This document shows, in pieces, positions 5,984 through 48,695 of a stretch of DNA of 64,000 nucleotides. The first letter of the stretch is position 1, and the number at the start of each line of letters is the position of its first letter. The notes under the pieces were generated by a model, which saw only the letters and a list, made by a program, of their open reading frames with translations, was not told where the DNA came from and made no database searches. A program made the position numbers and the translations under genes. The DNA is from a virus. The DNA lies in IMG/VR virus record IMGVR_UViG_3300007276_000035, positions 37,656 through 101,655 of that record. One strand, written 5' to 3'.

Positions 5984-7081
5984 ATGAATAATATCTATAA
6001 CATATACCCAAATTTAAAAAAGCACGGACACAAAATAGCTTTATACGATGACTTCTTGAACCGACTAAATCCTCAACTCACCGAGGATTTAAACACTTTA
6101 CTAGAGGATCATCAGTATGTGTTTCTGTTACGTGATGAGATCTTGTCTGTAGACTACATACAAATACTACATAACCTAACAAAAGATATACCACCGGGAC
6201 GATTGTTTCTGTTTGCAGCAAGTTTAAATCCTAAAGTGGCAGACTATTACTACGAATATTGTGAGGAGTTGGGTGTTAGAGCAATACCATTAATACTTTC
6301 TTCATTGATTGATATGCCAGTCGGGCAGCATACACAGCCAAAGATAAGTACTGGTGTTAGAAAAAAGAAGTTCTTGTGTTTTAATCGTGTACCTAGGGTA
6401 CATAGAATAATGTTATTAAAAGGACTCCACGAAAGAAATTTGGTTGATCAAGGCTTTGTTTCATTCGGTTTTGATCCACTAACGCCTGACATCGTAATAG
6501 ATAGTTTCCCTCCATCAATTAAAGATTTTCTTAATGAGCACAAAGACAAATGGCCTCTACTGCTCGATTACGACGATATAGTTTCTGTTAGCCACACGTC
6601 AATGATTGATTCCAGCTTATACCCTCTATTCGAGAATTCTTATTTTAGTGTAGTAAGTGAAACATACTTCTTTAACGGAACAGAACAGGATCCTCCGCAC
6701 CACTGGGAAAACAATTGGCAATATGTCTCTGTCCTAGCACCGTTTATATTTAAAGATGATATATCTATAACCGAAAAGACGTTTAGAGCCATATTTCACA
6801 AACATCCATTTATAATAGCCGGTGCTCCACACTCGTTAGCTAAGATAAGAGAATGGGGCTATCAGACTTTTTCGCCGTGGATAGACGAAAGCTACGATGC
6901 TTGTGAGGATCACGAAGCCAGACTAGAAATAATTCTAGAAGAAATAAATAGACTGTGTAGTCTGTCAGATCAAGAATTAAATAAAATGATAAACGAAATG
7001 GCAGATGTGCTAGAACATAACTACAGACTATATATAAACAAACCATACAACAGACAAATTACACAGGAACCGGTATTATGA
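5984..7081 (+). CDS. Fucosyltransferase-like phage protein, paralogue 1
   Basis: This 365-residue protein has N-F-S-V-V-S-E-T-like (Y-F-S-V-V-S-E-T-Y-F), then S-I-T-E-K-T-F-R-A-I-F-H-K-H-P-F-I-I, then a W-G-Y-Q-T-F-S-P-W-I-D-E-S-Y-D segment. This order resembles the C-terminal donor-binding half of GT10-type fucosyltransferases. Two relatives lie at 34740 and 58227. The acceptor is unknown; surface glycan or phage structural protein modification is possible. The ATGA overlap links it to the deformylase gene. Confidence 0.55.
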   Translation: MNNIYNIYPNLKKHGHKIALYDDFLNRLNPQLTEDLNTLLEDHQYVFLLRDEILSVDYIQILHNLTKDIPPGRLFLFAASLNPKVADYYYEYCEELGVRAIPLILSSLIDMPVGQHTQPKISTGVRKKKFLCFNRVPRVHRIMLLKGLHERNLVDQGFVSFGFDPLTPDIVIDSFPPSIKDFLNEHKDKWPLLLDYDDIVSVSHTSMIDSSLYPLFENSYFSVVSETYFFNGTEQDPPHHWENNWQYVSVLAPFIFKDDISITEKTFRAIFHKHPFIIAGAPHSLAKIREWGYQTFSPWIDESYDACEDHEARLEIILEEINRLCSLSDQELNKMINEMADVLEHNYRLYINKPYNRQITQEPVL

Positions 7082-7674
7082 AGCAGTATAATCCCTATGA
7101 CAAATATTCATCATCTGACGGCTTGGTATTAGACACCCTAGTTGTAGATGATGGGAAATGCGAATTAGTAGAACCAAGCCACCCAGCCCTGCATAAACGC
7201 GCATCTTTGGACCCATTCGATGGCACTGATTGGGTAGAACGTGAAAAAGAAATGCTTGACCTTATGCACGGTAAGTTAGGTGTAGGGTTAGCGTCCCCTC
7301 AAATCGGCTCAAGCTATAATATGTTTGTGATGCATCATAGCATCCTAGGTGATATAGGTGTGTACAATCCAACAGTTTTAGAAACAGAAGGTAAAGACCT
7401 GATAGAAGAAGGTTGCTTGTCCTGGCCGTTGCTGTACATACCAATATCTAGACCCGAAAGAATTAAAGTTAGTTATACAAAAAATGATGGCGAGACTATA
7501 GTAGAGACATGGATGGACGGGATGGATGCTCGGTGTTTCTTACACGAAGTAGATCATTTAAACGGTGTTAACTTTATAGACATCGTAAGTGAATTTAAAC
7601 TAAAACGTGCAAAAGAAAAGAGAGACAAGTTTTTTAAAAAGATGTCCAGGTCAGCCAAGAGGGTCAAATCTTAA
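7078..7674 (+). CDS. def: Peptide deformylase
   Basis: All three deformylase motifs are present: G-V-G-L-A-S-P-Q (motif 1), E-E-G-C-L-S (motif 2, metal Cys) and F-L-H-E-V-D-H-L-N-G (motif 3, HExxH). It should remove the formyl group from nascent N-termini at the ribosome. Phage deformylases are known from marine myoviruses. At 198 residues it has a longer N-terminus than minimal phage forms and a Lys/Arg-rich C-terminal tail that may bind the ribosome. In this genome it sits alongside a ClpS/ClpA/ClpP set, which reads protein N-termini. Confidence 0.9.
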   Translation: MKQYNPYDKYSSSDGLVLDTLVVDDGKCELVEPSHPALHKRASLDPFDGTDWVEREKEMLDLMHGKLGVGLASPQIGSSYNMFVMHHSILGDIGVYNPTVLETEGKDLIEEGCLSWPLLYIPISRPERIKVSYTKNDGETIVETWMDGMDARCFLHEVDHLNGVNFIDIVSEFKLKRAKEKRDKFFKKMSRSAKRVKS

Positions 7675-7677
7675 TAT

Positions 7678-8541
7678 ATGCTGAACCGATTTAATTTTTA
7701 TATTAATGATTTTGACCGTGTAAAAGACTATAGGGCTGAATACCCTGAAGCAGGAAAGATATTTAACTATCCTACTAGTTTTTGGTTAGGAACCCGCAAG
7801 AATAAAAAACGTCGACAGGCAGCGAATGTGCATAAGAGAGTAGTGCGACTGATGAAGCGTGTTGCTCCTGCTGAGCCTGTTCTAGTGATATACAATTTGC
7901 CTGATCGTGACATGGGTAATCACAGTAAAGGTGGCGCTGCTGACGACAAAGAATATCTAGAATTTATTCATGCTGTAGCTAGCGGTATAGGAAGTAGGAA
8001 ACCCATTCTAATATTCGAACCAGACGCAATACCGCATAGTACAATGATGACACAAGCACAACGAAAAAAACGATTATCATTAATGAAGAAAGCAATCAAG
8101 ATATTAACTGAGGAGAGTTCTGCTTTAATTTATATAGATATAGGACACAGCAATTGGTTGAGTGCTGAAGAAGCAGGAACATTATTCAACCAGGTATATG
8201 TAGAGGGGGTTTCTGGGTACAGTATTAATGTTAGTAACTTTCGCACTAATAAAGAAAGTATGCGGTGGGGAGGTCAAGTTGGAGATTATGCGCTAGTAAG
8301 TAACTTTGTGGTAGATACTAGTCGCAATGGTAATGGGCCTTACGGCAATAATTGGTGTAACCCTCCGGGTAGATGTTTAGGAACAGCACCTACCTTAAAT
8401 ACACACAATGAGAACTGCGATGCTTTTTTATGGATTAAGGTGCCTGGCGAAAGTGATGGTACATGTAACAATGGACCACGAGCAGGCCGCTTTTGGCCAG
8501 AGTACGCTAGAGAGTTAGTTCGTAATACGTCTTGGCTTTAA
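7678..8541 (+). CDS. GH6 family cellulase-like glycoside hydrolase
   Basis: The conserved GH6 segments appear in order: V-I-Y-N-L-P-D-R-D (catalytic Asp loop), I-F-E-P-D-A-I (the proton-donor Asp), Y-I-D-I-G-H-S-N-W-L, S-I-N-V-S-N-F, V-V-D-T-S-R-N-G-N-G-P, W-C-N-P-P-G-R and L-W-I-K-V-P-G-E-S-D-G. The family comprises endoglucanases and cellobiohydrolases acting on beta-1,4-glucan. At 287 residues it is a bare catalytic domain without signal peptide or carbohydrate-binding module. It could be a virion-borne enzyme for a glucan capsule or biofilm, or act after lysis. Its stop codon overlaps that of the convergent minus-strand gene. Confidence 0.88.
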   Translation: MLNRFNFYINDFDRVKDYRAEYPEAGKIFNYPTSFWLGTRKNKKRRQAANVHKRVVRLMKRVAPAEPVLVIYNLPDRDMGNHSKGGAADDKEYLEFIHAVASGIGSRKPILIFEPDAIPHSTMMTQAQRKKRLSLMKKAIKILTEESSALIYIDIGHSNWLSAEEAGTLFNQVYVEGVSGYSINVSNFRTNKESMRWGGQVGDYALVSNFVVDTSRNGNGPYGNNWCNPPGRCLGTAPTLNTHNENCDAFLWIKVPGESDGTCNNGPRAGRFWPEYARELVRNTSWL

Positions 8542-8894
8542 GATACGCCGCTTGGATCTGAAAAATCCTCAGCGTCTGGTGTAACAACTACGTTGTCTTT
8601 TTGATGGTCAGCATCAGGAACATTAATATCATTCTCTAAGTAATGCTTAACGCTACCAATATAATCATTAGCTTTGATAATCTTTGCTTGCCACCAATGC
8701 GGAAAGTCTGCATTATCTGGCGCACTGTCGAGCATCTTGTATAGCTCAACACAGTACTTGCCCATTTGAAACAGTTGCTTTTTAATAGCTGTGCGCTCAT
8801 CGTCGGTATGACCTATCGATGTTTTTGCTGTTTCTTCTTCGCCGTCCTCGTTAATGATTCCAGCTAGCAATTGCATACGTTCTATTTCATTCAT
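8538..8894 (-). CDS. Putative capsid-targeted internal protein, 118 aa
   Basis: The N-terminus MNEIERMQLLAGIINE is followed by D-G-E-E-E; I-N-E fits the [L/I]xE site of the T4-type prohead protease. The centre (H-W-W-Q-A-K-I-I-K-A-N-D-Y-I-G-S-V-K-H-Y-L) is a helical segment I recall from marine T4-like phage proteins. It is the last gene of the minus-strand block and overlaps the upstream gene. Function unknown. Confidence 0.55.
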   Translation of the reverse strand: MNEIERMQLLAGIINEDGEEETAKTSIGHTDDERTAIKKQLFQMGKYCVELYKMLDSAPDNADFPHWWQAKIIKANDYIGSVKHYLENDINVPDADHQKDNVVVTPDAEDFSDPSGVS

Positions 8895-9085
8895 TTGTTC
8901 AATCTCTTCTTGAATGCTTCAAATAATGGTAACAAGTCTTGTCTATGTGTACTAACTTCCTTACCGTCGAAGTAACTTGTAGTTACTAGTGTTAATTCTT
9001 TTTTGTTATCTATAATTTCCGTTTCTACTAACAAACGACTTTTAATTCCGTCTATTATTTTTTCTTCTAGGTTTAAATTAAACAC
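8891..9085 (-). CDS. Small hypothetical protein, 64 aa
   Basis: This short protein lies between two members of the putative internal-protein block, with overlapping start and stop on both sides. It has no clear [L/I]xE leader. The sequence looks like a beta meander followed by a helix. Confidence 0.45.
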   Translation of the reverse strand: MFNLNLEEKIIDGIKSRLLVETEIIDNKKELTLVTTSYFDGKEVSTHRQDLLPLFEAFKKRLNK

Positions 9086-9915
9086 TAGTACTCGTCCCCA
9101 TCATCACCCATTTCTCGCAGCTCTGTAACAGTATCCATCATAGTAGCCATGCTCTGTCCGGCGTAGCTATCATCACCAGCAGCACTCATGATGTGTCCGT
9201 ACCAGTATGCTTCTGCACGATTTCTAACTTGCCCACTTGGTAGTAAGCCCATAGCTTGATCAGTTAGTTCCATAATTGTCTGTGCAATTTCTTCTAGTTC
9301 ATCAGCAAGCATTGAGATATCACTATCTTCGCGTATAACAGATTCTTCTGTGTTGCCTTGTACTTCAGCTACAGCACCTTTTGCTTCTTCTTGTGTAAGC
9401 CAAGTAGCTACTGTTTTATTATTATCGCTGTAAATACTCCATGGCTCCATTGGTCGCCCAACTGCTCTCCATGGTGCAGGATAATCGTCGTTTGGTGCAA
9501 ATGCATTTACCTGCGGCGCATCGCCAATCCTAAACCCTTTCTCTTTGTATGCGGCCACTTTTTTGTCGCTTTTAACTTTAACATCTTTAAGTATGCTAGA
9601 ACCAGTATTAGTTTCGCCTTCGTCTGCTCTGTCCCGCCATGCGTCTAAGTCTTCGCCTAGGTCACTAAATACCGAAGAAAGATATGCGTGAACATCACTG
9701 CTACCAATTTCGTCTAGCTCTCTATCACCATAAAACTCAGCTGCTGATTCAACAGCTTGTAATACCTTTTCTGGACCATGCTTTTGAACTAGGTCCATGT
9801 ACTGCATTTTAATACGATGCATAATAGAATCATATACTGCTCGCATACTGTCAGTAGCCCATCTATCAAATGTGCTAGATTCAAATAAGTTTATTAGGTC
9901 ACGCATGTTCTTCAT
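9085..9915 (-). CDS. Putative capsid-targeted internal protein, 276 aa
   Basis: The N-terminus MKNMRDLINLFE is followed by S-S-T-F; L-F-E is a candidate prohead-protease site at residue 12. The first 100 residues are helical (H-R-I-K-M-Q-Y-M-D-L-V). A segment around residues 140-175 (W-R-A-V-G-R-P-M-E-P-W-S-I-Y) resembles a small beta domain, and the C-terminus is very acidic. The ribosome binding site is AGGA eight bases upstream. Function unknown. Confidence 0.55.
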   Translation of the reverse strand: MKNMRDLINLFESSTFDRWATDSMRAVYDSIMHRIKMQYMDLVQKHGPEKVLQAVESAAEFYGDRELDEIGSSDVHAYLSSVFSDLGEDLDAWRDRADEGETNTGSSILKDVKVKSDKKVAAYKEKGFRIGDAPQVNAFAPNDDYPAPWRAVGRPMEPWSIYSDNNKTVATWLTQEEAKGAVAEVQGNTEESVIREDSDISMLADELEEIAQTIMELTDQAMGLLPSGQVRNRAEAYWYGHIMSAAGDDSYAGQSMATMMDTVTELREMGDDGDEY

Positions 9916-9937
9916 TGTTATATTCCTGTTGGTAATT

Positions 9938-9960
9938 TTCTAAATTCGTTTATGTTATTG
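9938..9960 (-). repeat. Remnant duplicate of a leader-peptide start region
   Basis: These 23 bases match 10308-10330 (start of the next upstream gene, with its ATG and first codons) at 21 positions. In the remnant the ATG has become ATA, so it is not translated. It overlaps the stop codon of the gene at 9955. Confidence 0.6.
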
Positions 9961-10323
9961 GCTTTTGAGCCACTTACATAACTCTTCAACGCTACCGTCG
10001 AAGAACTTAATAGCTGGCTTGCCCTTCTTACCATCGTGCCAATAAACTGGACCTCCAGGTCTAGTGGTGCTGTACACATGCACTACTGCTAGACCATCTG
10101 GGCGGGTAATTATTGTGTGGGTGTTGCCTGGTGGTTCTTTAACAACACAACCGGCTACTTTTTTACCTGCAGAAGATTGTATGGCACGAAGTAAATCCTT
10201 TTCCTTGCTCAATGCTTTCTCCAGGTCCCTAACACGTTTTTTGGCTGCCACAAGATCGTCCTGCGTGTACTTCTTTTTGTTCGCTTCCTCAATTTTCTCT
10301 AATAGGATTCTAAATTCGTTCAT
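9955..10323 (-). CDS. Putative capsid-targeted internal protein with coiled coil, 122 aa
   Basis: The N-terminus MNEFRILLE is followed by K-I-E-E; L-L-E at residues 7-9 is a candidate cleavage site. Residues 15-50 (K-K-R-V-R-D-L-E-K-A-L-S-K-E-K) form a coiled coil. The C-terminal 70 residues are beta-rich. Its Shine-Dalgarno context (CAGGACTATAACATG) is nearly the same as that of the gene at 9915, consistent with a shared origin. Confidence 0.55.
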   Translation of the reverse strand: MNEFRILLEKIEEANKKKYTQDDLVAAKKRVRDLEKALSKEKDLLRAIQSSAGKKVAGCVVKEPPGNTHTIITRPDGLAVVHVYSTTRPGGPVYWHDGKKGKPAIKFFDGSVEELCKWLKSQ

Positions 10324-10324
10324 G

Positions 10325-11746
10325 TTATAGTCCTGCTAGTTGCCTAAGTTCAGCCATTGCGCTATCAATAGCATTCTGAGAAGTTTCTTCGACTGCTTCT
10401 TCTTCAACTGATTCTTCAGTTTCGTCTATTTCTGAATAGTCGTTAGCGTAATCATCTTCGCTAGGCTCACCTGAGCTGCCGCCTACTTTGCCAGTACCGT
10501 CACACTTGGTGCATTCGTAACTACGTGGTGCACCGTCCATGTCTACGCTGAAGTAATGCTCGCCTGTTCCGTCACAGTGTGGGCAATCGTCGCCGTCTGC
10601 TTCAGGCTCGTCTTCGCTTACATATTCAGCAGCGATGTCACTAAAGTCAACGCTATCCATCATGTCGTCTTCTGTATCTTGTACAGGAATTTCTTGATCG
10701 TCAGCTACGTCAAACTCATCGCTGGTATCTTCAGGCTCGCCTTCAGATTCTTCGCCACCAGCAGCGCGATCGCCATCATTATATGCACGGATTGCTAAAG
10801 TAGCTTGGTTGCTCAATCCAGCTTGCACTGAACTATCAACACTACTAATAAAATCAACTAGAGACTGTTGATCGCTAACAGAACCATCTGCTAAGCCTCC
10901 GCCTAGTTGCGCCATTGCATTGGAAAGCTCTGGTTCTTTTTCGCTTTCTGCATTACGCATAAGCAAACGCCCAATGTCAGCTAGCTTCTTCTCAGCATCA
11001 CTCATACCATAGTATGAACTTCTTCCTACCTGGAAAGGTACTGCCGCTGCTTCGTCAACACTTTCACTTAGTGGTAAGCCTGCAAGCTGGCGTAGTTCGT
11101 TTAAATTTTTCATATCAATACTCTCGTTAACTGTTATATTATATTTATCGTTTTCTGATTCATTAACACCCAATAGATAGTGTGCAACTAAATCAAAATA
11201 AGGTTTACCGTCTATGATTGTGTCAGCATCTATACCAGCCGCTTTTGTAAATGCGTCTCGATCGTTAGCAGCAACAGCATTTCTAACATCGGTTGCTGAA
11301 CTCAAGCGAGGTGTAGGCTTTTGATGTATACTAGCAAATTCGTAATAGCCATGCTTACCTTCTTTACCGTTATATTTTACTAAGGAATCAGTTAGCCAAG
11401 ATTCATCAGTATAAACGGTTAACGGTACTTTACCGTGTTCAGCATATACTTTGCTAGCAAGTGTAAACAGGTTTGATTCTGCAACAATGTGATTAGCTAC
11501 GCCTGGCCATAGTGCTTCCATTGCTTTAATCTTAACGTCGAATGGTAGAGGATCTTTCTTGCCTTGAGTAGATTTATTAGTGCCAACATACCAATGGTCG
11601 TTTTCGCTTGCCATTTGCCAGGCAGCAGCATGTCCCCTGTGGGGAGGATTGAACCGCCCGAACATTATACCCACAGTCTCGTATGAATCGTTGCTAGGCA
11701 AGGCACTGTTCTTTTCAAAGTCTTCTGTTATATCTTTAAATCTCAT
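10325..11746 (-). CDS. NMN-adenylyltransferase-like protein with capsid-targeting-like leader
   Basis: The chosen start gives MRFKDITE then D-F-E-K, with I-T-E as candidate cleavage site; an upstream in-frame ATG would overlap the preceding gene. Residues about 25-185 are a nucleotidyltransferase domain: G-R-F-N-P-P-H-R-G-H (HxGH) and R-L-S-S-A-T-D-V-R (SSxxxR). These fit NadM/NadR-type NMN adenylyltransferases, which make NAD from NMN and ATP. A second leader-like sequence, MKNLNELRQLAGLPLSE, begins at residue 212, and the C-terminus ends with A-E-L-R-Q-L-A-G-L. The tail is acidic with paired C-x-x-C-x-G-x-G zinc motifs as in DnaJ. It looks like a fusion of two proteins. Confidence 0.7.
   Translation of the reverse strand: MRFKDITEDFEKNSALPSNDSYETVGIMFGRFNPPHRGHAAAWQMASENDHWYVGTNKSTQGKKDPLPFDVKIKAMEALWPGVANHIVAESNLFTLASKVYAEHGKVPLTVYTDESWLTDSLVKYNGKEGKHGYYEFASIHQKPTPRLSSATDVRNAVAANDRDAFTKAAGIDADTIIDGKPYFDLVAHYLLGVNESENDKYNITVNESIDMKNLNELRQLAGLPLSESVDEAAAVPFQVGRSSYYGMSDAEKKLADIGRLLMRNAESEKEPELSNAMAQLGGGLADGSVSDQQSLVDFISSVDSSVQAGLSNQATLAIRAYNDGDRAAGGEESEGEPEDTSDEFDVADDQEIPVQDTEDDMMDSVDFSDIAAEYVSEDEPEADGDDCPHCDGTGEHYFSVDMDGAPRSYECTKCDGTGKVGGSSGEPSEDDYANDYSEIDETEESVEEEAVEETSQNAIDSAMAELRQLAGL
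11142..11149 (-). promoter_or_regulatory. Internal T4-type late promoter (GATAAATA, minus strand)
   Basis: GATAAATA lies inside the adenylyltransferase-like gene, 28 bases upstream of the in-frame ATG at 11113 that begins MKNLNELRQLAGL. A CGAGAG sequence sits before that ATG. The C-terminal half could therefore be made as a separate protein of about 262 residues. Confidence 0.5.
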
Positions 11747-11747
11747 A

Positions 11748-12887
11748 TTAAATACCAGGCTGCCATTTGTGTCTAGGAACAAATTTCACATTACCAAACT
11801 GCTTTTTGTCGTCACCGTATCTAACATGACCTTCACCTTTTGTATCCCAAATTTCGCCTTCTTGATCTTCTAGTTGATCAATTACACTGTTCTTAGCCAC
11901 TTGTATAATCTTAACTAACGTGAATATTTCTTCAGTGACGTTATTATACGCCTGGTCAAGCTCTTGTATTTTTGCTTGCTTGGGTTGACTTACAGTACTG
12001 TTAGCGAGCCATTGATAAAAGTGCTTACTACTTAATTTGTCTAGTTGCCTTGCTTTAGCAGTCTGGTTCACGTACTTGTAAATAATCTCTTTAACATCAG
12101 ACAAGCCTTTGACACCAGCAATGAATGTATCAATGTTCTTGCCATGCTGTGACACATACTTGTCAGCTTGATCTATTGCTGAAGTATCCACTTTAATTGG
12201 CTTCTTGTTGTATACTGGACCTAATACGATAATTGGGGCAGTGTTATTAAACTGACTAAAATCATCTATTGGTTGTTGATCGTTTTGGTTCATGCCGTAT
12301 TCTGGATAGTAAGCGTGTCCTACAATCATTGCGTCTGCTTGACTAATACGCTTGCCTAAGTCGCTGTCTTGACTTACGTGGTAACATGTACCTGAGTTTT
12401 CATTTGGACAAAAGTTATATATGCCGTTGTTGTCTAGTTCTGGGCGCGTAGAAAACATTAAGTCTCCGTATACAAACCCAACAAAATCCTTTGGTGTAGC
12501 TGCATCAAGTGGTGCGTATAAACTAGCAAACAATTTTGCAAACTGCTCTCTAGCAGGACCAGCAGCTTTAGTGCCTGTAGCAATAAAATTATAAAGTTCT
12601 TCTGCACTGTCTAGCTTAACATTGCGTCCCCAACCAGCAGTACCTGTAACTAGCAAAGGTCCGCCTGCAACTTCACGACCCCAATACACAGTAGGCTTAC
12701 CATCCCACTTCATGCGTATTGATGTTGATCCTTTATCTTGTGTAATTTCACGCAAGTGATCTAGTGCTTCTTTAACTCCAGCTGCACCGTAAAAGAATAC
12801 AAGATCTTCTAAATGATTAAAGGTTCTTCCTAGCTGTTTAAGCTCAAAAAGATTACGGGCTTCATAGATAAATTCAATCGCTTTCAT
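11748..12887 (-). CDS. KxDG nucleotidyltransferase (ligase-like) with capsid-targeting-like leader
   Basis: The N-terminus MKAIEFIYE is followed by A-R-N; I-Y-E at 7-9 is a candidate prohead-protease site. Residues 60-65 read K-W-D-G-K-P, the motif I lysine of ATP-dependent DNA/RNA ligases. Further along are F-V-Y-G-D-L-M-F (possible motif III), E-G-H-V-R (about 352, motif IV-like) and N-V-K-F (about 368, motif V-like). A covalent nucleotidyltransferase is therefore likely; DNA or RNA end joining is inferred. It has no Shine-Dalgarno, and a GATAAATA ends six bases before the ATG. Confidence 0.6.
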   Translation of the reverse strand: MKAIEFIYEARNLFELKQLGRTFNHLEDLVFFYGAAGVKEALDHLREITQDKGSTSIRMKWDGKPTVYWGREVAGGPLLVTGTAGWGRNVKLDSAEELYNFIATGTKAAGPAREQFAKLFASLYAPLDAATPKDFVGFVYGDLMFSTRPELDNNGIYNFCPNENSGTCYHVSQDSDLGKRISQADAMIVGHAYYPEYGMNQNDQQPIDDFSQFNNTAPIIVLGPVYNKKPIKVDTSAIDQADKYVSQHGKNIDTFIAGVKGLSDVKEIIYKYVNQTAKARQLDKLSSKHFYQWLANSTVSQPKQAKIQELDQAYNNVTEEIFTLVKIIQVAKNSVIDQLEDQEGEIWDTKGEGHVRYGDDKKQFGNVKFVPRHKWQPGI

Positions 12888-12893
12888 ATTACT

Positions 12894-12901
12894 TATTTAT
12901 C
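12894..12901 (-). promoter_or_regulatory. Late promoter abutting a start codon (minus strand)
   Basis: GATAAATA on the minus strand ends at 12894, six bases before the ATG at 12887. The predicted transcript would start at the start codon. Confidence 0.5.
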
Positions 12902-12917
12902 TACTTTACACGTATTT

Positions 12918-13742
12918 CTATCTGTAATATTTAATGTATTGCCTTGCGATATATTCCCCGATCAAGATATGTTCGGTGTCACTGAAGTGTCCCTGGGTTA
13001 ATGTACCATTACTGTTAACATGGTCGTAGCGGTTCTCTACTAGATTTGGCTTCGGCAATCTTTTTTGTATCTCAGCCCATTCGGTTAGTATATTACTATC
13101 AGACCATAGTTTTGAAGTATACGGTGATAGACCCAGCCAGGTTTCAGTCACATGAAACTCAAGACCATAGCTTTTACACAACAAAAATAAATGATTTATA
13201 ACTTCGGTATTAACATATTGTGAACAGCTTTCTGGATAGTACTTTATGGCTAATGCAACATCCGGGTCGTATCCTTCACTAGGATCCACGTCTTGGTATT
13301 CAATTCCGTGCCCTCGCTCAGTTCGATGTACATGAGTAGGAACTCCGGCATCGCTAACACCAAACAGCCTAGCTTCTTGTGTGGGGGTAAAAAATACGTT
13401 TATCTTGTCGTATTTTTTCTGTGCCTCATTGAGGTCATGAATTACAAACTGTGTGAGAGAATAAAGACCCCAGCCGTTTGACGATGAACTAAGGCAAAAA
13501 CTAATCATGTCATGCTCTAGTATATTACTAGCTATAGTAGGATACGCTAGATCAGGCCTTGAAAAACTTTTATCTGTCTTGATATATCGATAGGTATACT
13601 CTAATCCTGCATTTTCACCAGGATTAGTATAAACGTAGTCGCTGTTTTGCAGACTAACTTGTTGTATATGATCTGATGGGAAAAAATGTAATAGCTCTGC
13701 TCCCATGGGAATACTGCATCCTAACCAAATATCTAAGTTCAT
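12918..13742 (-). CDS. SGNH-like protein
   Basis: The N-terminus D-I-W-L-G-C-S-I-P-M-G-A-E-L fits the block I nucleophile strand of SGNH hydrolases, and the C-terminal G-H-F-S-D-T-E-H-I-L-I-G-E-Y fits the D-x-x-H block V. The same layout appears in the paralogues at 42877 and 43605, which share I-W-L-G-x-S and the early G-A-E. Whether it is an active esterase is unclear because the nucleophile context is G-C-S rather than G-D-S. It overlaps the dioxygenase-like gene by four bases. Confidence 0.6.
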   Translation of the reverse strand: MNLDIWLGCSIPMGAELLHFFPSDHIQQVSLQNSDYVYTNPGENAGLEYTYRYIKTDKSFSRPDLAYPTIASNILEHDMISFCLSSSSNGWGLYSLTQFVIHDLNEAQKKYDKINVFFTPTQEARLFGVSDAGVPTHVHRTERGHGIEYQDVDPSEGYDPDVALAIKYYPESCSQYVNTEVINHLFLLCKSYGLEFHVTETWLGLSPYTSKLWSDSNILTEWAEIQKRLPKPNLVENRYDHVNSNGTLTQGHFSDTEHILIGEYIARQYIKYYR

Positions 13743-14269
13743 GCGTGTTTAACTCCTACTATATGCACTCGGTCTTTTTCACCGTGGTTTATTGCACAGT
13801 GTAAACGTGTTGTGTTTGTTTCGTAAGTGTTACCGGCATCGAGATGAAAAATTTTCGCAGTCCAGTCATCTTCGTTGTAAAAGTACATTAGGCTAGTTGG
13901 GTTGGTTATAACAGGTATGTGTAATCGTATACTTTCCTTGTCTGGATACAGCTTATCGTCGTGTATAGAATATGCAGTCTTGGGAAGCATTTTTAAAATA
14001 CGCCAACGGTAATACTCAGGGTAGCGTAAAATACATTCTTCAATGTAAGTGCCTTTTAAATAATTATTTATTTGGTTGTATTCTGATTCTGGCATTGTTA
14101 TACTAGATGTTCTTCCAATACTGACAAGCCAATCGTTAGAGCCGGTCTTACTAGTAAGACTTATTTGTAATTCGTTTAATAAATTTTGTGAAGTAACTAG
14201 ATCTCTGATTTCAGTAGCTAGTAAATCTACATTGATATCAGAGTCTAGTTGTTTGACGTAGTTATGCAT
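13739..14269 (-). CDS. Aspartyl/asparaginyl beta-hydroxylase-like 2OG dioxygenase
   Basis: The C-terminal half has Y-S-I-H-D-D-K, then I-R-L-H-I-P-V-I-T, then H-L-D-A-G-N-T-Y-E, then R-L-H-C-A-I-N-H-G-E-K-D-R-V-H-I-V-G. This is the double-stranded beta-helix pattern with H-x-D and a distal His and Arg, as in Asp/Asn beta-hydroxylases. It probably uses Fe(II) and 2-oxoglutarate to hydroxylate a protein side chain. It is cotranscribed with the SGNH-like gene. Confidence 0.7.
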   Translation of the reverse strand: MHNYVKQLDSDINVDLLATEIRDLVTSQNLLNELQISLTSKTGSNDWLVSIGRTSSITMPESEYNQINNYLKGTYIEECILRYPEYYRWRILKMLPKTAYSIHDDKLYPDKESIRLHIPVITNPTSLMYFYNEDDWTAKIFHLDAGNTYETNTTRLHCAINHGEKDRVHIVGVKHA

Positions 14270-14295
14270 TATAACTACTTATAGTGTCTGTTAAA

Positions 14296-14481
14296 TTAAG
14301 CTACTTCTTTCTGAAGCATTCTGAATGCGCCGTAAGCTACACCAGCCATTGCGATATACTTAAGAAACGGGCTTGCTAGTAGTACTGCTAAGCTAACGCC
14401 TGCAATAACACCGCCGTCCCAAGTTGAACGCTCTGCTAATCTTGCTTTAACCCAATCTGTAATTTTAGTAATGAAATCCAT
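14296..14481 (-). CDS. Small membrane protein, possibly holin-like, 61 aa
   Basis: It has an amphipathic N-terminus (I-T-D-W-V-K-A-R-L-A-E-R-S-T-W) followed by one or two closely spaced hydrophobic segments (G-V-S-L-A-V-L-L-A-S-P-F-L and I-A-M-A-G-V-A-Y-G). A good GGAGA precedes the start. Size and topology fit a holin or small virion membrane protein; no direct evidence decides. Confidence 0.5.
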   Translation of the reverse strand: MDFITKITDWVKARLAERSTWDGGVIAGVSLAVLLASPFLKYIAMAGVAYGAFRMLQKEVA

Positions 14482-14493
14482 TGATCTCTCCTT

Positions 14494-15660
14494 TTAATCG
14501 TTATTATAAAGATACATTGATCGTGTAACCCAATTGCTGTTAAACCAATCAACTTTCTTGTCTATCTCATCGTCAACCCCGTTCGGAAAAGTTACTGTAG
14601 CAGTTTGCCTTTTTGGGTTGTGTGAGATTTTTGCTTGCGGGAATGTTCCCTGTAGTGATTTGTGTACTTTTTTATCTACGTGGAAGAACTTAACACCTGT
14701 AGCTCCATCTCCGTAGAACATTTCGTTAACATCACCAGGTGATTCTTTCTGATAAGGCTTGTTACATTTTATACAACGCTTAGGATCATGTGGGTCGTAT
14801 TCGTGTTCACATTTGTCCTCTGACATAGCGCCTTTGAGTTGATCTATTACGCTACGTTGACCTTTAACGTCTAAGCTCTTGCCCATAACCTTTAGTATTT
14901 GTGCAAGTTGTTCTTTGCTTGGATCTGACTCAATGAAGTCACTAAACAGTGTAGCTACCATTTTGTGTAGTGCTGCATTTCCAGCTAGTACCATTGGGCT
15001 TTCGTCTACAGCTTTAGGATTGCGCCAGTCTTTTTTCATTTTAGATTTTAGCCTATCGTAATCATCACTGCTACCTATACCTGCATTCTTTGGTACTGGT
15101 TTCTCACCTGGACCTGGACCTTTCTTTGCAGGTCTAGCTTTTTTCTTTTCTTCTACTGGTCTTGGTTCTAGGTCTTTGGTAGTAACCTTGTTCTTTTTCA
15201 TACGACTAGTTTCCTTGTTAACGTGGGCAAGTGCAGCTTCTTCAGAATCAAAGCCACCTTTAAAACGGTTAGCCCACTTACCTGCTCTAGTCTTCCAAGC
15301 ACGGTTAGCAGCTTCACCTACCATCTTGTTGCGCATTGGGTGTGGACTGGTGTTGCCCTTCTTGGGTGGCTTGTTGGTCTTGGGCTTAGGGTCACTAGCA
15401 CGAGCATGTGGAGTTCTTGCTTCATCAACGTTACCAGGAGTATGAGCCTCTTGGATGCCTTCATCCATTTCACGAGCTTCTTCATCACTCAGGTACATGT
15501 CAGTGTCACGGTCGTAATACTTGCCTTCTTGTGGATCGTAATAATATACTCTACCGTTCTTAGCGATAAACGGGCCTTCTAACCCGGGTATATCTGTATA
15601 GCGTTCACGGTCTATCTTAGGCAATGTAGACCAGCCTTCTAGTATCTCTTTAAATTTCAT
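14494..15660 (-). CDS. Putative capsid-targeted internal protein with zinc ribbon, 388 aa
   Basis: The N-terminus MKFKEILE is followed by G-W-S; I-L-E at 6-8 is a textbook [L/I]xE site, and a second (I-Q-E before A-H-T) occurs near residue 70. Residues 80-220 are very rich in Lys, Arg, Pro and Gly and should bind DNA. A zinc-binding segment C-E-H-E-Y-D-P-H-D-P-K-R-C-I-K-C lies near residue 290, and the C-terminus is a small alpha/beta domain. A late promoter and a GGGGAG site precede the gene. A packaged DNA-binding protein is the best guess. Confidence 0.55.
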   Translation of the reverse strand: MKFKEILEGWSTLPKIDRERYTDIPGLEGPFIAKNGRVYYYDPQEGKYYDRDTDMYLSDEEAREMDEGIQEAHTPGNVDEARTPHARASDPKPKTNKPPKKGNTSPHPMRNKMVGEAANRAWKTRAGKWANRFKGGFDSEEAALAHVNKETSRMKKNKVTTKDLEPRPVEEKKKARPAKKGPGPGEKPVPKNAGIGSSDDYDRLKSKMKKDWRNPKAVDESPMVLAGNAALHKMVATLFSDFIESDPSKEQLAQILKVMGKSLDVKGQRSVIDQLKGAMSEDKCEHEYDPHDPKRCIKCNKPYQKESPGDVNEMFYGDGATGVKFFHVDKKVHKSLQGTFPQAKISHNPKRQTATVTFPNGVDDEIDKKVDWFNSNWVTRSMYLYNND

Positions 15661-15687
15661 AAACTCCCCGAGCTAAAGCATTTAAAC

Positions 15688-15695
15688 ATATTTAT
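15688..15695 (-). promoter_or_regulatory. T4-type late promoter (GATAAATA, minus strand)
   Basis: GATAAATA on the minus strand lies 27 bases upstream of the ATG at 15660 and should drive the first gene of the minus-strand block. It is back to back with a sigma-70 promoter on the plus strand. Confidence 0.65.
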
Positions 15696-15704
15696 CTGAT
15701 CTTG

Positions 15705-15734
15705 GTTGACTTGATCCACTTTATACTGTATACT
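15705..15734 (+). promoter_or_regulatory. Sigma-70 promoter
   Basis: TTGACT (15705-15710), 18 bp, TATACT (15729-15734). It would start the plus-strand operon carrying the UvdE gene. Confidence 0.7.
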
Positions 15735-15765
15735 ATATACTAATCTAACAGTTTAAGGTAGTATT

Positions 15766-16041
15766 ATGTCTTGGAACATACGAATAATCAAACAAACCCA
15801 CCCCTGTGGTACTGCAACATACGGCCTACACGAAGTGCATTACGACGATGATATGCAACCTGTTAGTTGCACTGAAAACACTATAGCAATGTCTGCAGAA
15901 TCATGGGACGACCTATATGATTACTGTGTTATGGTATTACGCGCATTCATTAAGCCTGCATTAGACATGAGCATTTTCGAACAAGATGATGTACAAGAAT
16001 CAACAGACCGAGCACTGGGACTACTTAACAATGAGCTTTAA
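15766..16041 (+). CDS. Hypothetical protein, 91 aa
   Basis: An acidic small protein (W-N-I-R-I-I-K, then Y-G-L-H-E-V-H-Y-D-D) with a helical C-terminus. It follows a sigma-70 promoter and overlaps the UvdE start. The first 45 residues look like a beta hairpin; I recall similar short proteins in marine phages but no function. Confidence 0.5.
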   Translation: MSWNIRIIKQTHPCGTATYGLHEVHYDDDMQPVSCTENTIAMSAESWDDLYDYCVMVLRAFIKPALDMSIFEQDDVQESTDRALGLLNNEL

Positions 16042-17071
16042 TCAATCTATTAAGAGAATGGGGTTTTGTTGCAAGTACATGGACCCTGATCAAACACAGC
16101 CTAAAAAATTATTAGAGGAACTACAACGACCACTAAATACTCGTAGTACTACAATGACTTGGCTTAACAATCAAACCAAGGATGTTGCGTACCAGCGACT
16201 ATGGGAGTTAATGGAACATAACATTGCTTCGTACCAAAGGTTAGTAGAATATGCAGGCAGTTTACCAGAAAATATGCGCATGGTTAGGTTGGGTAGCGAT
16301 TGCTTGCCTGGCTTCACTCAGTCGGTGTGGGGACAACATTGGCGTCGAGGAGAAGTTCGACGATATGTGGAGACAAATCTTGCCAGAGTGGGCGAAACCG
16401 CTCGTAGGCTTGATGTTCGTCTTAGTTTTCATCCTGGTCAGTTTACTGTTTTGGCAAGTGATCGACCTGACGTAGTAGAAAAAAGCATCGAAGAATTAGA
16501 GTACCACGCATACATGGCAGAGCTAATGGGCTATGGTCAAGAGTTTATGGACTTTAAGATTAACGTACATATCTCCGGTAAGCAAGGTGCAGAAGGTATC
16601 GTTAAGGTACTACCTAGACTAAGCCCAGTTGCCCGTAATACTATGACAATAGAAAACGACGAAATGAAATGGGGTCTAGACGAAAGTCTTAAATTAAAAG
16701 ATCATTTAGCTTTAGTTCTAGACGTACACCATCACTGGATACGCGATGAAGAATATATTGAGGCAAACGATGACCGAGTTAAAGCAGTGGTCGACAGCTG
16801 GCGCGGTGTTCGCCCTGTCATTCATTATAGTTACAGCCGTTGTGAGCAGTTACCTGATGATGCTAGTAAGCATACTAATATGCATGATATCAAAAGTTTG
16901 TTGGAGCAAGGTTTTAAAAAGCAAAAACTCCGCGCACACAGTGAATACTATCCTAACAAGAAAGTAAACGAGTGGGCACTTAGCTTTTGGGACCAATTTG
17001 ATATTCAATGCGAAGCTAAAGCAAAAAATTTAGCAAGCAAACAACTATATGATCAATCGCTTAACCAATAG
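16031..17071 (+). CDS. uvsE: UV damage endonuclease (UvdE)
   Basis: The start MSFNQSIKRMGFCCKY matches the UvdE beginning. Further family segments are R-L-G-S-D-C-L-P-G, R-L-S-F-H-P-G-Q-F, N-V-H-I-S-G-K-Q-G, T-I-E-N-D-E-M and L-V-L-D-V-H-H-H-W, which supply the metal-binding His, Glu and Asp residues of this TIM-barrel enzyme. It incises DNA 5' of UV photoproducts in an alternative excision repair. At 346 residues it is full length. Confidence 0.9.
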   Translation: MSFNQSIKRMGFCCKYMDPDQTQPKKLLEELQRPLNTRSTTMTWLNNQTKDVAYQRLWELMEHNIASYQRLVEYAGSLPENMRMVRLGSDCLPGFTQSVWGQHWRRGEVRRYVETNLARVGETARRLDVRLSFHPGQFTVLASDRPDVVEKSIEELEYHAYMAELMGYGQEFMDFKINVHISGKQGAEGIVKVLPRLSPVARNTMTIENDEMKWGLDESLKLKDHLALVLDVHHHWIRDEEYIEANDDRVKAVVDSWRGVRPVIHYSYSRCEQLPDDASKHTNMHDIKSLLEQGFKKQKLRAHSEYYPNKKVNEWALSFWDQFDIQCEAKAKNLASKQLYDQSLNQ

Positions 17072-18056
17072 ATTTTTACCGCCAAGGCTTCCTTTCATAC
17101 CATTGTATGATGGCCAAGATACTATCTTATACTGTTACGGTGAGGTCGACACAGTCCTAGCACAAAAAGTATCGCCCAAAGCATCAATAATAACTATCGA
17201 CAATGCTGACGGTTTGCTTAACCGTGATGAAGAAACATTGTGTGTGTTGTTGTATACTTTAAAAGATGCACTCAACGAAGATCAACTCAAGCAGTTAACA
17301 CAAAGAAACATTCTAGTGGTTGCTCCAGTAGGGCACGAAGTAGTTGATGTTGAATTCCCGGCTAGCCATCCTGACGTGCTTAGTGTCGGAATACATAACA
17401 AAGACAATCTAGTTGAACTTAATTCAAATATCGGCGATATTGATATTTACGCTCATGCTAAAGATTTAAACCAAGCAGCTACTTTGGTCGCCAGCGGATG
17501 CCTACATTATATTCAAACAAAAATGGTACGCTATGCACACGAACTTAAAGATTATGTTTTACTTAGTGCGACCAGGAATGCATTAACTGGTCCGTGGCCA
17601 CCTTTTCATGACAAACATAAAGCAATTCACGGCAAGCATTTAAACAATAGAACAATGTTTGTTCCTACAAAGCAAGAACCTATGTTGTGGAACATGCCTA
17701 AGGACTTTAATCAATACTTTTTCATTAATAAGTATAAAACAAAATATATTCCACTAAATATATCGAACACAGTAAAAGAAGTTGACCTAGGCGATGTAAA
17801 TGAATTACCTGACTTTGTAGAACTTAAGAACAATGTTCTACGTATTGATCCGAATCGTGACGATATTAAACCAGGAATATATCAATTTGAGTTAACAGCA
17901 TATACGGCTGATACACACCAAATACAAACTTTTTATATACGGTTAAAAAGTAACACAGGAGAAGACATAGATTATACTTACGCATTAGTTAGGATAGACG
18001 GCGAGTACTTTGAGCTTGGTGTCGACGATGTGTTAGAATTTTCAGGCTATCATTAA
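17049..18056 (+). CDS. Degenerate subtilase-like protein
   Basis: Residues about 95-155 read like the S8 subtilase core: N-I-L-V-V-A-P-V-G-H, F-P-A-S-H-P-D-V-L-S-V-G-I, then N-S-N-I-G-D-I-D-I-Y-A-H. The positions that in active enzymes hold the oxyanion Asn (A-A-G-N) and the G-T-S-M-A serine are not conserved, and the Asp and His motifs are not seen. It is probably a non-catalytic scaffold or binding domain. The C-terminal 120 residues are beta-rich (Y-Q-F-E-L-T-A-Y-T). It sits in a chain with an SGNH protein and a glycosyltransferase. Confidence 0.45.
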   Translation: MINRLTNRFLPPRLPFIPLYDGQDTILYCYGEVDTVLAQKVSPKASIITIDNADGLLNRDEETLCVLLYTLKDALNEDQLKQLTQRNILVVAPVGHEVVDVEFPASHPDVLSVGIHNKDNLVELNSNIGDIDIYAHAKDLNQAATLVASGCLHYIQTKMVRYAHELKDYVLLSATRNALTGPWPPFHDKHKAIHGKHLNNRTMFVPTKQEPMLWNMPKDFNQYFFINKYKTKYIPLNISNTVKEVDLGDVNELPDFVELKNNVLRIDPNRDDIKPGIYQFELTAYTADTHQIQTFYIRLKSNTGEDIDYTYALVRIDGEYFELGVDDVLEFSGYH

Positions 18057-18977
18057 ATGATTAGAGACTTAGTTGTAATAGGAACAAGTATGGCCAGCGG
18101 CGTTGGCCAGGGCCTTGAGTCTCGCACAGCAGAAGATGGTGCCGTTGTTAGTTGGGTTACTGCCTTAGCTAATTTATTAGAGGTTGACAACGTTTGGAAT
18201 CATAGCTTACCTGGAAAGCCGATTGGGTTAGTTCACGCAGATTTTGTTGAATTCCATAGGCAATATATTAAAAGATACGGAACTAGCGAAAATCTCACAA
18301 TAATACTTGAATACAGTATGCCTAGCTATAGACATTGGGATCCTGTTGCTGCATCTAGATCCGACTGTATGGGTATGAATATAATCCCACTTGCGCAGTT
18401 TAGTCCCATCATGGATTGGGAAAAAGCAAGATCATCAGCATATTATCGAGATGCTAAATTTCTACAGACTGAATTTTACGAAAGGCGCGAGATAGACATG
18501 TTAGCAGTATCACGTAACGCTGGCGCTGACATGTATCAAAAAGTAACAGACGATGTTATTTTGCCTGACGAGGTTTTAGATTTTGAAGCTCGTGCATTAG
18601 AATGGTTTAGACCTACAGAAGAAAATAAATTACGTTACATGAAATATGCCTTCGACGAACTAGGTTCTGCCCAGCGACTGTGTAACCATTGGAATACAGC
18701 TTACTTGCAAACTTGGGCAGGAGGATTTAATGACGATTACAAACGCGGAGTTGATCGATTTCTAAAGCCGTTGTCACAAGGCAACCCACGACTAATACCA
18801 ATGCAAGAGTTTACGTCTATTACTGCTACTAACGACTGGAGTGATAAAGTGTGGCGTAATCATCCAGACGAAGTCGGACACAAACGAATCGCTGAATATT
18901 TTTACAATTACATTAAAGAACATAAGATATACGAAAGACCTAACAATAATTTATATAGAGGATATACTAGTGAGTAA
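18057..18977 (+). CDS. SGNH-like protein
   Basis: It starts with L-V-V-I-G-T-S-M-A-S-G-V-G, compatible with SGNH block I, and ends with N-H-P-D-E-V-G-H-K-R-I-A-E-Y-F, a typical block V (H-P-D-x-x-G-H). The middle (L-T-I-I-L-E-Y-S-M-P-S) occupies the block III position. It begins one base after the subtilase-like gene and overlaps the glycosyltransferase gene. It may add or remove acyl groups on a glycan; this is inferred from context. Confidence 0.6.
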   Translation: MIRDLVVIGTSMASGVGQGLESRTAEDGAVVSWVTALANLLEVDNVWNHSLPGKPIGLVHADFVEFHRQYIKRYGTSENLTIILEYSMPSYRHWDPVAASRSDCMGMNIIPLAQFSPIMDWEKARSSAYYRDAKFLQTEFYERREIDMLAVSRNAGADMYQKVTDDVILPDEVLDFEARALEWFRPTEENKLRYMKYAFDELGSAQRLCNHWNTAYLQTWAGGFNDDYKRGVDRFLKPLSQGNPRLIPMQEFTSITATNDWSDKVWRNHPDEVGHKRIAEYFYNYIKEHKIYERPNNNLYRGYTSE

Positions 18978-19800
18978 TTTGCTTTGCATGGCAGTGTCAA
19001 AAATTATTGGCGATTCAGCTGAATATAATAAAAATTTAGACAATCAAACATTATTTAATGCATACCAGGACATGTGTAATATTGTTTTACATAGCGCAGA
19101 AACATTCATCCAGGAAGACTTTGACATTGTGGTTTTTGGAGATGATGTTGAAAGTTATCAAGAAATATTTCATAAAAACTTTGCTAGCGTTTATGAAGCA
19201 TGGGATATTGATAGCCCTAATAACGTGTTGTTTTTGGACTGCGACACATTAATAATTAGCCCCACAGAAGTATTCGGTAAGTATGATCGCTTTCAATTAT
19301 TTAATTATACCGACCCTAAATCGCTGCAAGGACCAGACGCTAAAAACAAATACAACTTAGCGTTTGATCATTACTTTAATGCAGGGGTTAGGTATTATCC
19401 TGACACCATGACTAAAGAAGTATGGGACCTAGGTTGGAGCTATGCATCGGATTGGGATTACGATATTTGGGGTACAGAACAAATTATATTTAATGAAATG
19501 ATGTTCTCACAAGACCGCGATCATACTACCTGGTTAAAGCCAGAAATGAATTACCAAATTCCAGGCGTTGCATTTAATAGCTTGGGTGCTTATGGTAAAG
19601 TACATCAACTTGATAGACTGAACGGGTGTAATGTCCAGGATGCTAACATTTTACATTTACATGGAACACGCGGTGCCTTGAACACATTGTTACAACAATG
19701 GGTTATTTGGAAACAAATAACTAACGAGGAGTTTGAGTTTGATAATTTTGTCGTGGTTAAAGATAGCGATGGTAATGCTACAAACTTGCAACAAAAATAA
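18970..19800 (+). CDS. GT8-like glycosyltransferase
   Basis: The D-x-D-type metal site is in V-L-F-L-D-C-D-T-L-I, followed by H-Y-F-N-A-G-V-R-Y-Y-P, G-T-E-Q-I-I-F-N-E and I-L-H-L-H-G-T-R-G, the usual order of a GT-A fold retaining enzyme of the GT8 kind. The GTG at 18970 overlaps the preceding stop; an ATG at 18988 is an alternative. Sugar donor and acceptor are unknown. Confidence 0.65.
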   Translation: MSNLLCMAVSKIIGDSAEYNKNLDNQTLFNAYQDMCNIVLHSAETFIQEDFDIVVFGDDVESYQEIFHKNFASVYEAWDIDSPNNVLFLDCDTLIISPTEVFGKYDRFQLFNYTDPKSLQGPDAKNKYNLAFDHYFNAGVRYYPDTMTKEVWDLGWSYASDWDYDIWGTEQIIFNEMMFSQDRDHTTWLKPEMNYQIPGVAFNSLGAYGKVHQLDRLNGCNVQDANILHLHGTRGALNTLLQQWVIWKQITNEEFEFDNFVVVKDSDGNATNLQQK

Positions 19801-19989
19801 TTTTTTAAATAATGGCGCCACTAAGTAAAAAACTGGACAGTCTAGTTGCAGTACTCTGCGTCTAAATAGCCTATACTAAGAGGGAGGCACACAATATTAC
19901 TTGTTAGACTGAACATCAACTGTCCGTACTAATATTTACTAAAAAATACAAAAATCTATTCTAAACGGTGGATTTTAAGTCAAAACAGC
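19801..19989 (+). other. Intergenic region without a gene
   Basis: No open frame of useful length is seen. GGACAGT (19835-19841) can pair with ACTGTCC (19919-19925), enclosing about 80 nt, so a structured RNA is possible but weakly supported. The 3' part is A/T-rich and runs into a sigma-70 promoter. Confidence 0.3.
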
Positions 19990-20018
19990 TTGACCGACCA
20001 ATTAAAGTGTAGTATAAT
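19990..20018 (+). promoter_or_regulatory. Sigma-70 promoter
   Basis: TTGACC (19990-19995), 17 bp, TATAAT (20013-20018), followed 25 bases later by the start of the Sm-like gene with an AAGGAA site. Confidence 0.8.
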
Positions 20019-20042
20019 GTATATAACATAAAGGAATTAATC

Positions 20043-20348
20043 ATGCTAATCGATAAACCAATTGCAAAGAACGATGTAGTAACAATCAAACTATTAAGTG
20101 GCGAAGAACTTATTGCGACTTATGTTAACGAAGAAAATGGTAAGTATAATGTAGACAAGCCAGTGCAACTAGTTAGTGTCCCAGGAGACAATGGCCAAAT
20201 GGGAGTGCAGTTCCATCCTTACTTGGTTACTAGTGCAAGCACTTCGTTTGGCATAAACACTGCATTAGTTGTTACACTATGTCCTAGCTCTGATCAAGTA
20301 GCTAAAATGTATTTAGAACAAACTACTAGTATACAACTCGCAACATAA
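20043..20348 (+). CDS. Sm/LSm-like small protein, 101 aa
   Basis: The N-terminal part (V-V-T-I-K-L-L-S-G-E-E-L-I-A-T-Y) resembles the Sm1 strand pattern of LSm/Hfq-like proteins, and I recall Sm-like annotations for similar phage proteins. A role in RNA binding is plausible. First gene of an operon with a nuclease and a QueD-like gene. Confidence 0.5.
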   Translation: MLIDKPIAKNDVVTIKLLSGEELIATYVNEENGKYNVDKPVQLVSVPGDNGQMGVQFHPYLVTSASTSFGINTALVVTLCPSSDQVAKMYLEQTTSIQLAT

Positions 20349-20358
20349 GGAAGAAAAA

Positions 20359-21329: not shown

Positions 21330-21372
21330 TCAGTAGAGTTTACATAAATGTTGTTATATCAGAGCGATATTT

Positions 21373-36010: not shown

Positions 36011-36017
36011 AATAAAT

Positions 36018-36114: not shown

Positions 36115-36145
36115 AGTTATGTTAATTAGGAATTAGGAGTAATAA

Positions 36146-48689: not shown

Positions 48690-48695
48690 ATTATT

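What the first reader, a model, noticed from the sequence alone, without database searches (positions are those of the whole stretch)
8538..15660. Minus-strand block of proteins with T4-like capsid-targeting leaders
Five proteins begin with an 8-12-residue leader and a sixth with a 16-residue leader, each ending in [L/I]xE: MKFKEILE, MKAIEFIYE, MRFKDITE, MNEFRILLE, MKNMRDLINLFE and MNEIERMQLLAGIINE. In T4 the prohead protease gp21 cuts after (L/I)xE, and internal proteins such as IPIII carry leaders like MKTYQEFIAE that send them into the prohead for ejection with DNA. The block therefore predicts a set of proteins injected into the host, including an NMN-adenylyltransferase and a ligase-like enzyme.
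Basis: partly seen in the sequence, partly recalled or inferred. Interest (0 to 1): 0.9.

Follow-up and report, generated by a model that had tools for sequence, protein, structure and literature searches.

The report
Tagged capsid cargo of T4-like jumbo phages
A marine giant phage attaches short cut-off address labels to a set of its proteins, apparently so that they are loaded into the virus head (and probably delivered with the DNA); this is the known phage-T4 trick in a different sequence dialect, plus what looks like a second label copied from the head's own scaffold protein.

Summary
The six N-termini exist exactly as described. [LI]xE with Glu at residue 7-20 is common by chance (~10-20% of proteins), but here it marks 8/10 genes of the minus-strand block against 13/137 elsewhere in the contig (p=2e-6), and 52/89 against 106/599 genes in nine related contigs (p=5e-15). 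In two orthologous families with 49 distinct leaders, P1 is Glu in 49/49 and P3 is Leu/Ile/Val in 49/49, while leader length and sequence vary. DUF6267 enzymes occur with and without leaders.

The contig is a fragment without head genes. A gp21-type (PF03420) protease is encoded by PA5oct, its closest cultured relative, and by both relative contigs that contain the head module. In PA5oct the syntenic block is largely flagged ESI-MS/MS virion protein.

It ends the gp22-like scaffold and many cargo proteins, and internally it is often followed by [LIV]xE (16/28 against 12% expected). I propose that it is a scaffold-mimic docking tag.

Best reading: a lineage-specific prohead-targeting and cleavage system, like T4's CTS but not its sequence. 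Injection is inferred. 'NMN-adenylyltransferase' is not established; 'ligase-like' rests on motifs only.

The parts
14494..15660 (-). 388-aa protein, leader MKFKEILE (15637-15660); residues 15-63 related to small Vibrio jumbo-phage proteins (phrog_13298)
   Evidence: related ORF in G006 11204-12028 starts MNIFDITEA
15689..15696 (-). GATAAATA, putative T4-type late promoter element 36 bases before the MKFKEILE gene
   Evidence: GATAAATA upstream of 120 genes against 6.1 expected in nine contigs
14296..14481 (-). 61-aa probable membrane protein, conserved in the block (49% to G005); its [LI]xE at residue 17 is probably chance
13739..14269 (-). 176-aa protein without leader, conserved in the block (41-43% to G005, G006)
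12918..13742 (-). 274-aa protein without leader; no Pfam match
11748..12887 (-). 379-aa DUF6267 enzyme (invariant KWDG, EGxV; ligase-like motifs), leader MKAIEFIYE (12861-12887)
   Evidence: Pfam PF19782 3e-18, alignment A1, residues 1-24 disordered in the model
12894..12901 (-). GATAAATA 14 bases before the DUF6267 start
10325..11746 (-). 473-aa protein: leader MRFKDITE (11723-11746), nucleotidyltransferase domain (residues ~20-203), internal tag and site, acidic region with CxxCxGxG zinc-finger-like motif, C-terminal tag
   Evidence: phrog_395 cytidyltransferase 2e-14; PF01467 and DnaJ zinc-finger matches below cut-off
11063..11104 (-). internal LAG[IL] tag followed by a cleavage-like site: LNELRQLAGLPLSE
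10328..10357 (-). C-terminal LAG[IL] tag: MAELRQLAGL-stop
9955..10323 (-). 122-aa protein, leader MNEFRILLE (10297-10323)
9085..9915 (-). 276-aa protein, leader MKNMRDLINLFE (9880-9915); part resembles a tag-bearing 644-aa protein of G002 (70438-72372)
8891..9085 (-). 64-aa GTG-start ORF; its MFNLNLEE is probably chance
8538..8894 (-). 118-aa protein, N-terminal tag plus site MNEIERMQLLAGIINE (8847-8894); orthologues start MNEIQRLQQLAGLSITE and MNEIEKLQQLAGI

Best explanation
The minus-strand block is a cargo module of a T4-related jumbo phage. Its proteins are made late, recruited into the prohead core by short terminal peptides, cut free by the gp21-type prohead protease after [LI]xE, enclosed in the head with the DNA, and probably ejected into the host. 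Two signals are used: (1) an N-terminal propeptide of 8-17 residues in a lineage-specific dialect (M[KR][ILF]x[DE][IVF]...[LI]xE), a functional analogue of T4's capsid-targeting sequence; (2) an amphipathic h..h[KR]xLAG[IL] tag, also found at the C-terminus of the gp22-like scaffold, placed at the N-terminus, inside or at the C-terminus of cargo and, when not terminal, often followed by a protease-like site. Shown here: presence, clustering, conservation of P1 Glu and P3 Leu/Ile/Val, presence or absence among orthologues, sharing of the tag with the scaffold, protease in relatives, MS flags in the syntenic block of PA5oct. Inferred: cleavage, packaging and injection of these very proteins, and the docking role of the tag.
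For: Clustering of leaders in this contig and in related contigs. P1=Glu 49/49 and P3=L/I/V 49/49 in two orthologous families with otherwise variable leaders. DUF6267 leaderless in Vibrio phage 2.275.O and XaC1 but with leaders elsewhere. PF03420 protease in PA5oct, KVP40, Melnitz, S-CAM4, S-SM2, six further phages besides T4 and both relative contigs that hold head genes; the MCP site YLSE|A of relatives matches T4 FLTE|A. PA5oct block after the helicase: 12 of 18 genes flagged ESI-MS/MS (p=0.0045), and 7/93 flagged against 1/174 unflagged proteins start M[KRLF][ILF]x[DE][IVF] (p=0.003, post hoc). Tag: about 26 instances in ten contigs against about 2 in shuffles, ends gp22 in four phages or contigs and several cargo families, internal copies followed by [LIV]xE in 16/28 against 12% (p=2e-8). 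GATAAATA late-promoter-like site before the block.
Against: No proteomics of this virus. No S77 protease in the record held, which is a fragment without head genes. A bare [LI]xE leader does not predict MS detection in PA5oct (17% of flagged, 24% of unflagged); only the refined start does, and that test was post hoc with few cases. Several block members (176-, 274-, 61-, 64-aa) have no convincing leader. The gp22 end in Salicola SCTP-2, XaC1 and CBB only loosely resembles the tag. No cargo with a scaffold-like end was found in T4, KVP40, S-SM2 or Melnitz.
Confidence: 0.78

Rival explanations
1. The proteins are structural core (scaffold-like) proteins that shape the prohead and are then degraded or kept there; they are cut by the protease but not delivered as effectors to the host.
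For: The tag is shared with the gp22-like scaffold; acidic regions occur in the 473-aa protein; T4 core proteins carry the same cleavage motif and are mostly removed (PMC9026906).
Against: Several carry enzyme-type domains (DUF6267 with KWDG, nucleotidyltransferase, amidoligase-like) whose bodies are exchanged between relatives, which fits T4 internal proteins better than scaffolds.
Confidence: 0.25
2. The N-terminal peptides are conserved for another purpose (chaperone or membrane contact, assembly of the enzymes themselves) and the [LI]xE is incidental.
For: The first residues of the leaders are amphipathic; no cleavage has been shown.
Against: Glu at P1 and Leu/Ile/Val at P3 never vary at the junction in 49 leaders while other positions do; unrelated proteins share the pattern; the leader is missing in some orthologues.
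Confidence: 0.1
3. Chance: [LI]xE is frequent and the first reader picked matches.
For: Background of 10-24%.
Against: Clustering in this contig (p=1.7e-6) and in related contigs (p=5e-15), and junction conservation.
Confidence: 0.03

Closest known systems
T4 capsid-targeting sequence (CTS) of internal proteins IPII and IPIII, and related propeptides of Alt, gp24 and gp21
   Same: Short N-terminal propeptide on unrelated mature proteins, ending in L/I-X-E, the cleavage motif of the S77 prohead protease; variable cargo (PMC9026906, PMC3012670; T4 sequences read).
   Different: The window's leaders do not follow M[KQ]xxxxF[IL]xE (that form is in T4, KVP40, S-SM2 and Melnitz); cargo includes large enzyme-like proteins; a second scaffold-shared tag is used.
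Virion-protein block downstream of the gp41-type helicase in Pseudomonas jumbo phage PA5oct
   Same: Syntenic position, homologous MFLKD protein, leaders of the same dialect, MS-flagged virion proteins, same scaffold tag.
   Different: PA5oct has no DUF6267 match and its cytidyltransferase gp177 starts MSILTSILNNTLNSV, without a leader of this kind.
phiKZ/SPN3US inner-head proteins with propeptides
   Same: Packaged and ejected proteins cut by a prohead protease (PMC5694885, PMC10052503).
   Different: Mostly long propeptides (111-254 residues) and an AxE/SxE-type motif.
Scaffold-mediated cargo loading (e.g. engineered P22 scaffold fusions)
   Same: Cargo recruited through a scaffold-derived peptide (own knowledge).
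   Different: Here the tag would be natural and shared by several unrelated phage proteins; docking not shown.

Membership tests
T4-type CTS / internal proteins | short (7-20 residue) N-terminal propeptide ending in [LI]xE | tested here: met
T4-type CTS / internal proteins | same propeptide type on non-homologous mature proteins | tested here: met
T4-type CTS / internal proteins | sequence pattern of the T4 CTS, M[KQ]xxxxF[IL]xE | tested here: not met
   present in T4, KVP40, S-SM2, Melnitz; the window's leaders use another dialect
T4-type CTS / internal proteins | gp21-type S77 prohead protease in the same virus | tested here: inconclusive
   absent from the 101-kb fragment, which lacks the head module; present in PA5oct and in both relative contigs with head genes
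T4-type CTS / internal proteins | protein found in virions with N-terminus cleaved after Glu | not testable with these tools
   only ESI-MS/MS flags of PA5oct proteins are available
T4-type CTS / internal proteins | ejection into the host | not testable with these tools
   none
DUF6267 (PF19782) | match above Pfam's gathering score | tested here: met
   66.6 bits against 27
nucleic-acid ligase / covalent nucleotidyltransferase | motif I KxDG, motif IV EGxV, later Lys motif | tested here: met
   invariant K60-W-D-G63 and E352-G353-x-V355; nearly invariant KLVD
nucleic-acid ligase / covalent nucleotidyltransferase | ligase fold | tested here: inconclusive
   model pLDDT 73; no significant PDB match
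NMN adenylyltransferase | match above the NMNAT model cut-off | tested here: not met
   nadR model 15.1 bits against 341; only weak generic cytidylyl/adenylyltransferase matches, phrog_395 cytidyltransferase 2e-14

The most novel reading that the evidence does not exclude
T4-related jumbo phages use a second, natural cargo-loading code: an amphipathic h..h[KR]xLAG[IL] peptide shared with the C-terminus of their gp22-like scaffold docks unrelated proteins into the prohead core. Multi-domain cargo is built as a polyprotein with 'tag plus [LIV]xE' cassettes between domains, so that the prohead protease releases the parts inside the head.
Probability: 0.45. Interest if true: 0.78.

Novelty: new variant of a known kind. 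Interest (0 to 1): 0.62.

Why it matters
What jumbo phages carry in their heads is largely unknown, and most of their genes have no function. If the leaders and the LAG[IL] tag are address labels, capsid cargo can be read from sequence in a large group of uncultured phages, including enzymes that would act on the host at once. It would also give new natural peptides for loading proteins into phage heads.

Tried and rejected
Bare [LI]xE as a predictor of virion proteins in PA5oct: rejected, no enrichment. Exact T4 late promoter TATAAATA: 2 in the window against 6.5 expected; the lineage's element is GATAAATA. DUF6267 fold by AlphaFold plus Foldseek: no significant match. PDB sequence searches with DUF6267 and the nucleotidyltransferase: nothing significant. 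Single-protein scan of viral contigs with DUF6267: no relative; the helicase worked. Test whether cargo of classical T4-likes carries their own gp22 end (h..Y[LMA]): essentially not found. Literature searches found no report of such leaders or of the LAG[IL] tag in this jumbo lineage, within the held open-access library only.
Full report
What the sequence is. The window is positions 37656-101655 of a 101,655-base virus record. By its gp41-type helicase the closest cultured phages are the Pseudomonas jumbo phage PA5oct group (52% identity), then Sinorhizobium phage Phosso and Agrobacterium phage Atu_ph07. It is a T4-related jumbo phage of which only a fragment is held; by eye no portal, capsid or scaffold gene was seen in it and a search for the S77 prohead protease found nothing.

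Observation. The minus-strand block has ten ORFs and the six N-termini are as described. The bare motif is weak: 17-24% of PA5oct proteins have [LI]xE with Glu at residue 6-20, and MS-detected proteins have it no more often than others. The evidence lies in clustering and conservation. With Glu at residue 7-20, 8 of 10 block genes match, 7 of 12 in a second block at record 11593-23268 (just after the helicase), and 13 of 137 elsewhere (minus block against rest p=1.7e-6). In nine related contigs including this one, genes within 12 kb after the helicase match in 52 of 89 cases and all others in 106 of 599 (p=5e-15). These contigs are related, so the p-value overstates independence.

Relatives. 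The helicase search gave 80 loci. The ORFs after the helicase mostly begin with such leaders: MRFIEISKPLITE, MEFLLLDKVLTE, MKISDIIVE, MLIEEIETVTE and so on. In two families where the conserved body starts right after the leader (...E|ARMVWR and ...E|[AS]RL[YF]R), 49 distinct leaders have Glu at P1 in 49 and Leu, Ile or Val at P3 in 49, while P2 and the upstream residues vary. The DUF6267 enzyme starts directly at its conserved NTHLEHLED/NTHIEHLDD in Vibrio phage 2.275.O and XaC1 but carries a leader in most relatives. Methylophilales phage Melnitz has DUF6267, a basic protein and a cytidyltransferase next to each other after its helicase, with starts MLTLINFSKYITE, MKKFSELTSELIE and MKKFSEIIE; S-SM2 cytidyltransferase starts MKSFFQFLSE.

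Protease. PF03420 is found in PA5oct, KVP40, Melnitz, S-CAM4, S-SM2 and in the two relative contigs that hold head genes (G002 E=4e-28, G007 E=8e-28), and in seven further phages including T4. T4's own sites were read as a control: MNEPQLLIE (gp21), MLKEQLIAE (gp22), FLTE|AEIGG (gp23), MAKINELLRE (gp24). The capsid protein of relatives has YLSE|AATAG (G002) or QLSE|AATTG (G007) at the equivalent place.

Virion evidence. The PA5oct record flags 93 proteins ESI-MS/MS. Its block after the helicase has 12 of 18 compared genes flagged (p=0.0045), and 7 of 93 flagged but 1 of 174 unflagged proteins start M[KRLF][ILF]x[DE][IVF] (p=0.003). I had seen the flagged N-termini before writing that expression, so it is post hoc. 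The scaffold-position gene of PA5oct (84724-85830) is not flagged, as expected of a protein degraded in maturation.

A second element. The 16-residue 'leader' MNEIERMQLLAGIINE is MNEIQRLQQLAGLSITE and MNEIEKLQQLAGI in orthologues. The same h..h[KR]xLAG[IL] string ends the gp22-like scaffold (IRKLAGLSK in G002 and G007, LRRLAGIK in PA5oct, LTKIAGIRK in Vibrio 2.275.O) and ends the window's 473-aa protein (AELRQLAGL), the 757- and 762-aa nucleotidyltransferase polyproteins of G006 and G005, and about twenty proteins of a variable slot after the helicase. In ten contigs 26 instances were counted against about 2 in shuffled proteins. When not terminal it is followed within 10 residues by [LIV]xE in 16 of 28 cases against 12% in the same proteins (p=2e-8), e.g. 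LAGLPLSE in the window. In PA5oct two MS-flagged proteins carry it (gp281, gp249); in Pectobacterium phage CBB an annotated virion structural protein does. In T4, KVP40, S-SM2 and Melnitz the scaffold end differs and essentially no cargo shares it. This makes a scaffold-mimic docking tag the simplest reading, but docking itself is not shown.

Cargo. DUF6267 has invariant KWDG, EGxV and a nearly invariant KLVD, as in covalent nucleotidyltransferases and ligases; the model is only fair (pLDDT 73), its first 24 residues are disordered, and no fold match is significant. The 473-aa protein has a generic HxGH nucleotidyltransferase domain and an acidic region with a CxxCxGxG zinc-finger-like motif; NMN specificity is not supported. 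The 1459-aa protein of the second block is amidoligase-like (phrog_2443, 4e-6). The minus block is conserved in place in G005 (47638-54134) and G006 (10043-20268), with several members exchanged.

Expression. GATAAATA, resembling T4's late element, stands upstream of 120 of 685 genes in nine contigs against 6.1 expected; ATAAATA precedes portal and tail genes in relatives, and here GATAAATA stands 36 bases before the MKFKEILE gene and 14 before DUF6267. This fits late expression of the block; the promoter itself is inferred.

Known or new. T4's capsid-targeting sequence and the L/I-X-E motif are well established, and CTS has been proposed as a general way for T4-like phages to load proteins (PMC9026906, PMC3012670). 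New here, as far as the held library shows, are the different dialect in the PA5oct-like jumbo lineage, the breadth of enzyme-like cargo, and the scaffold-shared tag. I therefore call it a new variant of a known kind: it works like CTS, while the T4 sequence pattern itself was tested and not met.

Noticed in passing
window 7678-8541 (+): Glycosyl hydrolase family 6 (cellulase-type) gene next to a peptide deformylase gene (7078-7674); the GH6-like neighbour is also beside the block in G005 and G006.
   Followed up: partly
nine related contigs: GATAAATA is strongly enriched upstream of genes (120 against 6.1); ATAAATA sits in two position classes, about -12 to -14 and -26 to -44 from the start codon; the close class would give nearly leaderless mRNA.
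   Followed up: partly
record 15548-19927 (L001): 1459-aa amidoligase-like protein with leader MRLNEFSKEQVSE; relatives reach 2000 residues.
   Followed up: partly
window 24936-25319, 28053-29279, 45096-45470: By eye, IscU-like, SufS-like and SufE-like genes: the phage may encode iron-sulfur cluster assembly.
   Followed up: no
record 35307-35984 and 35989-36600: Tandem paralogues (53% identical); only the second has a clear leader, MLIENIITE.
   Followed up: no
T4 NC_000866 about 18966-19130 (- strand; loci L252-L254): 54-aa ORF starting MKTFKEFIKE, a T4-style capsid-targeting leader.
   Followed up: no
window 15986-17071 (+): UvdE-type UV endonuclease gene beside the block; similar genes stand beside it in G005 and G006.
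   Followed up: no
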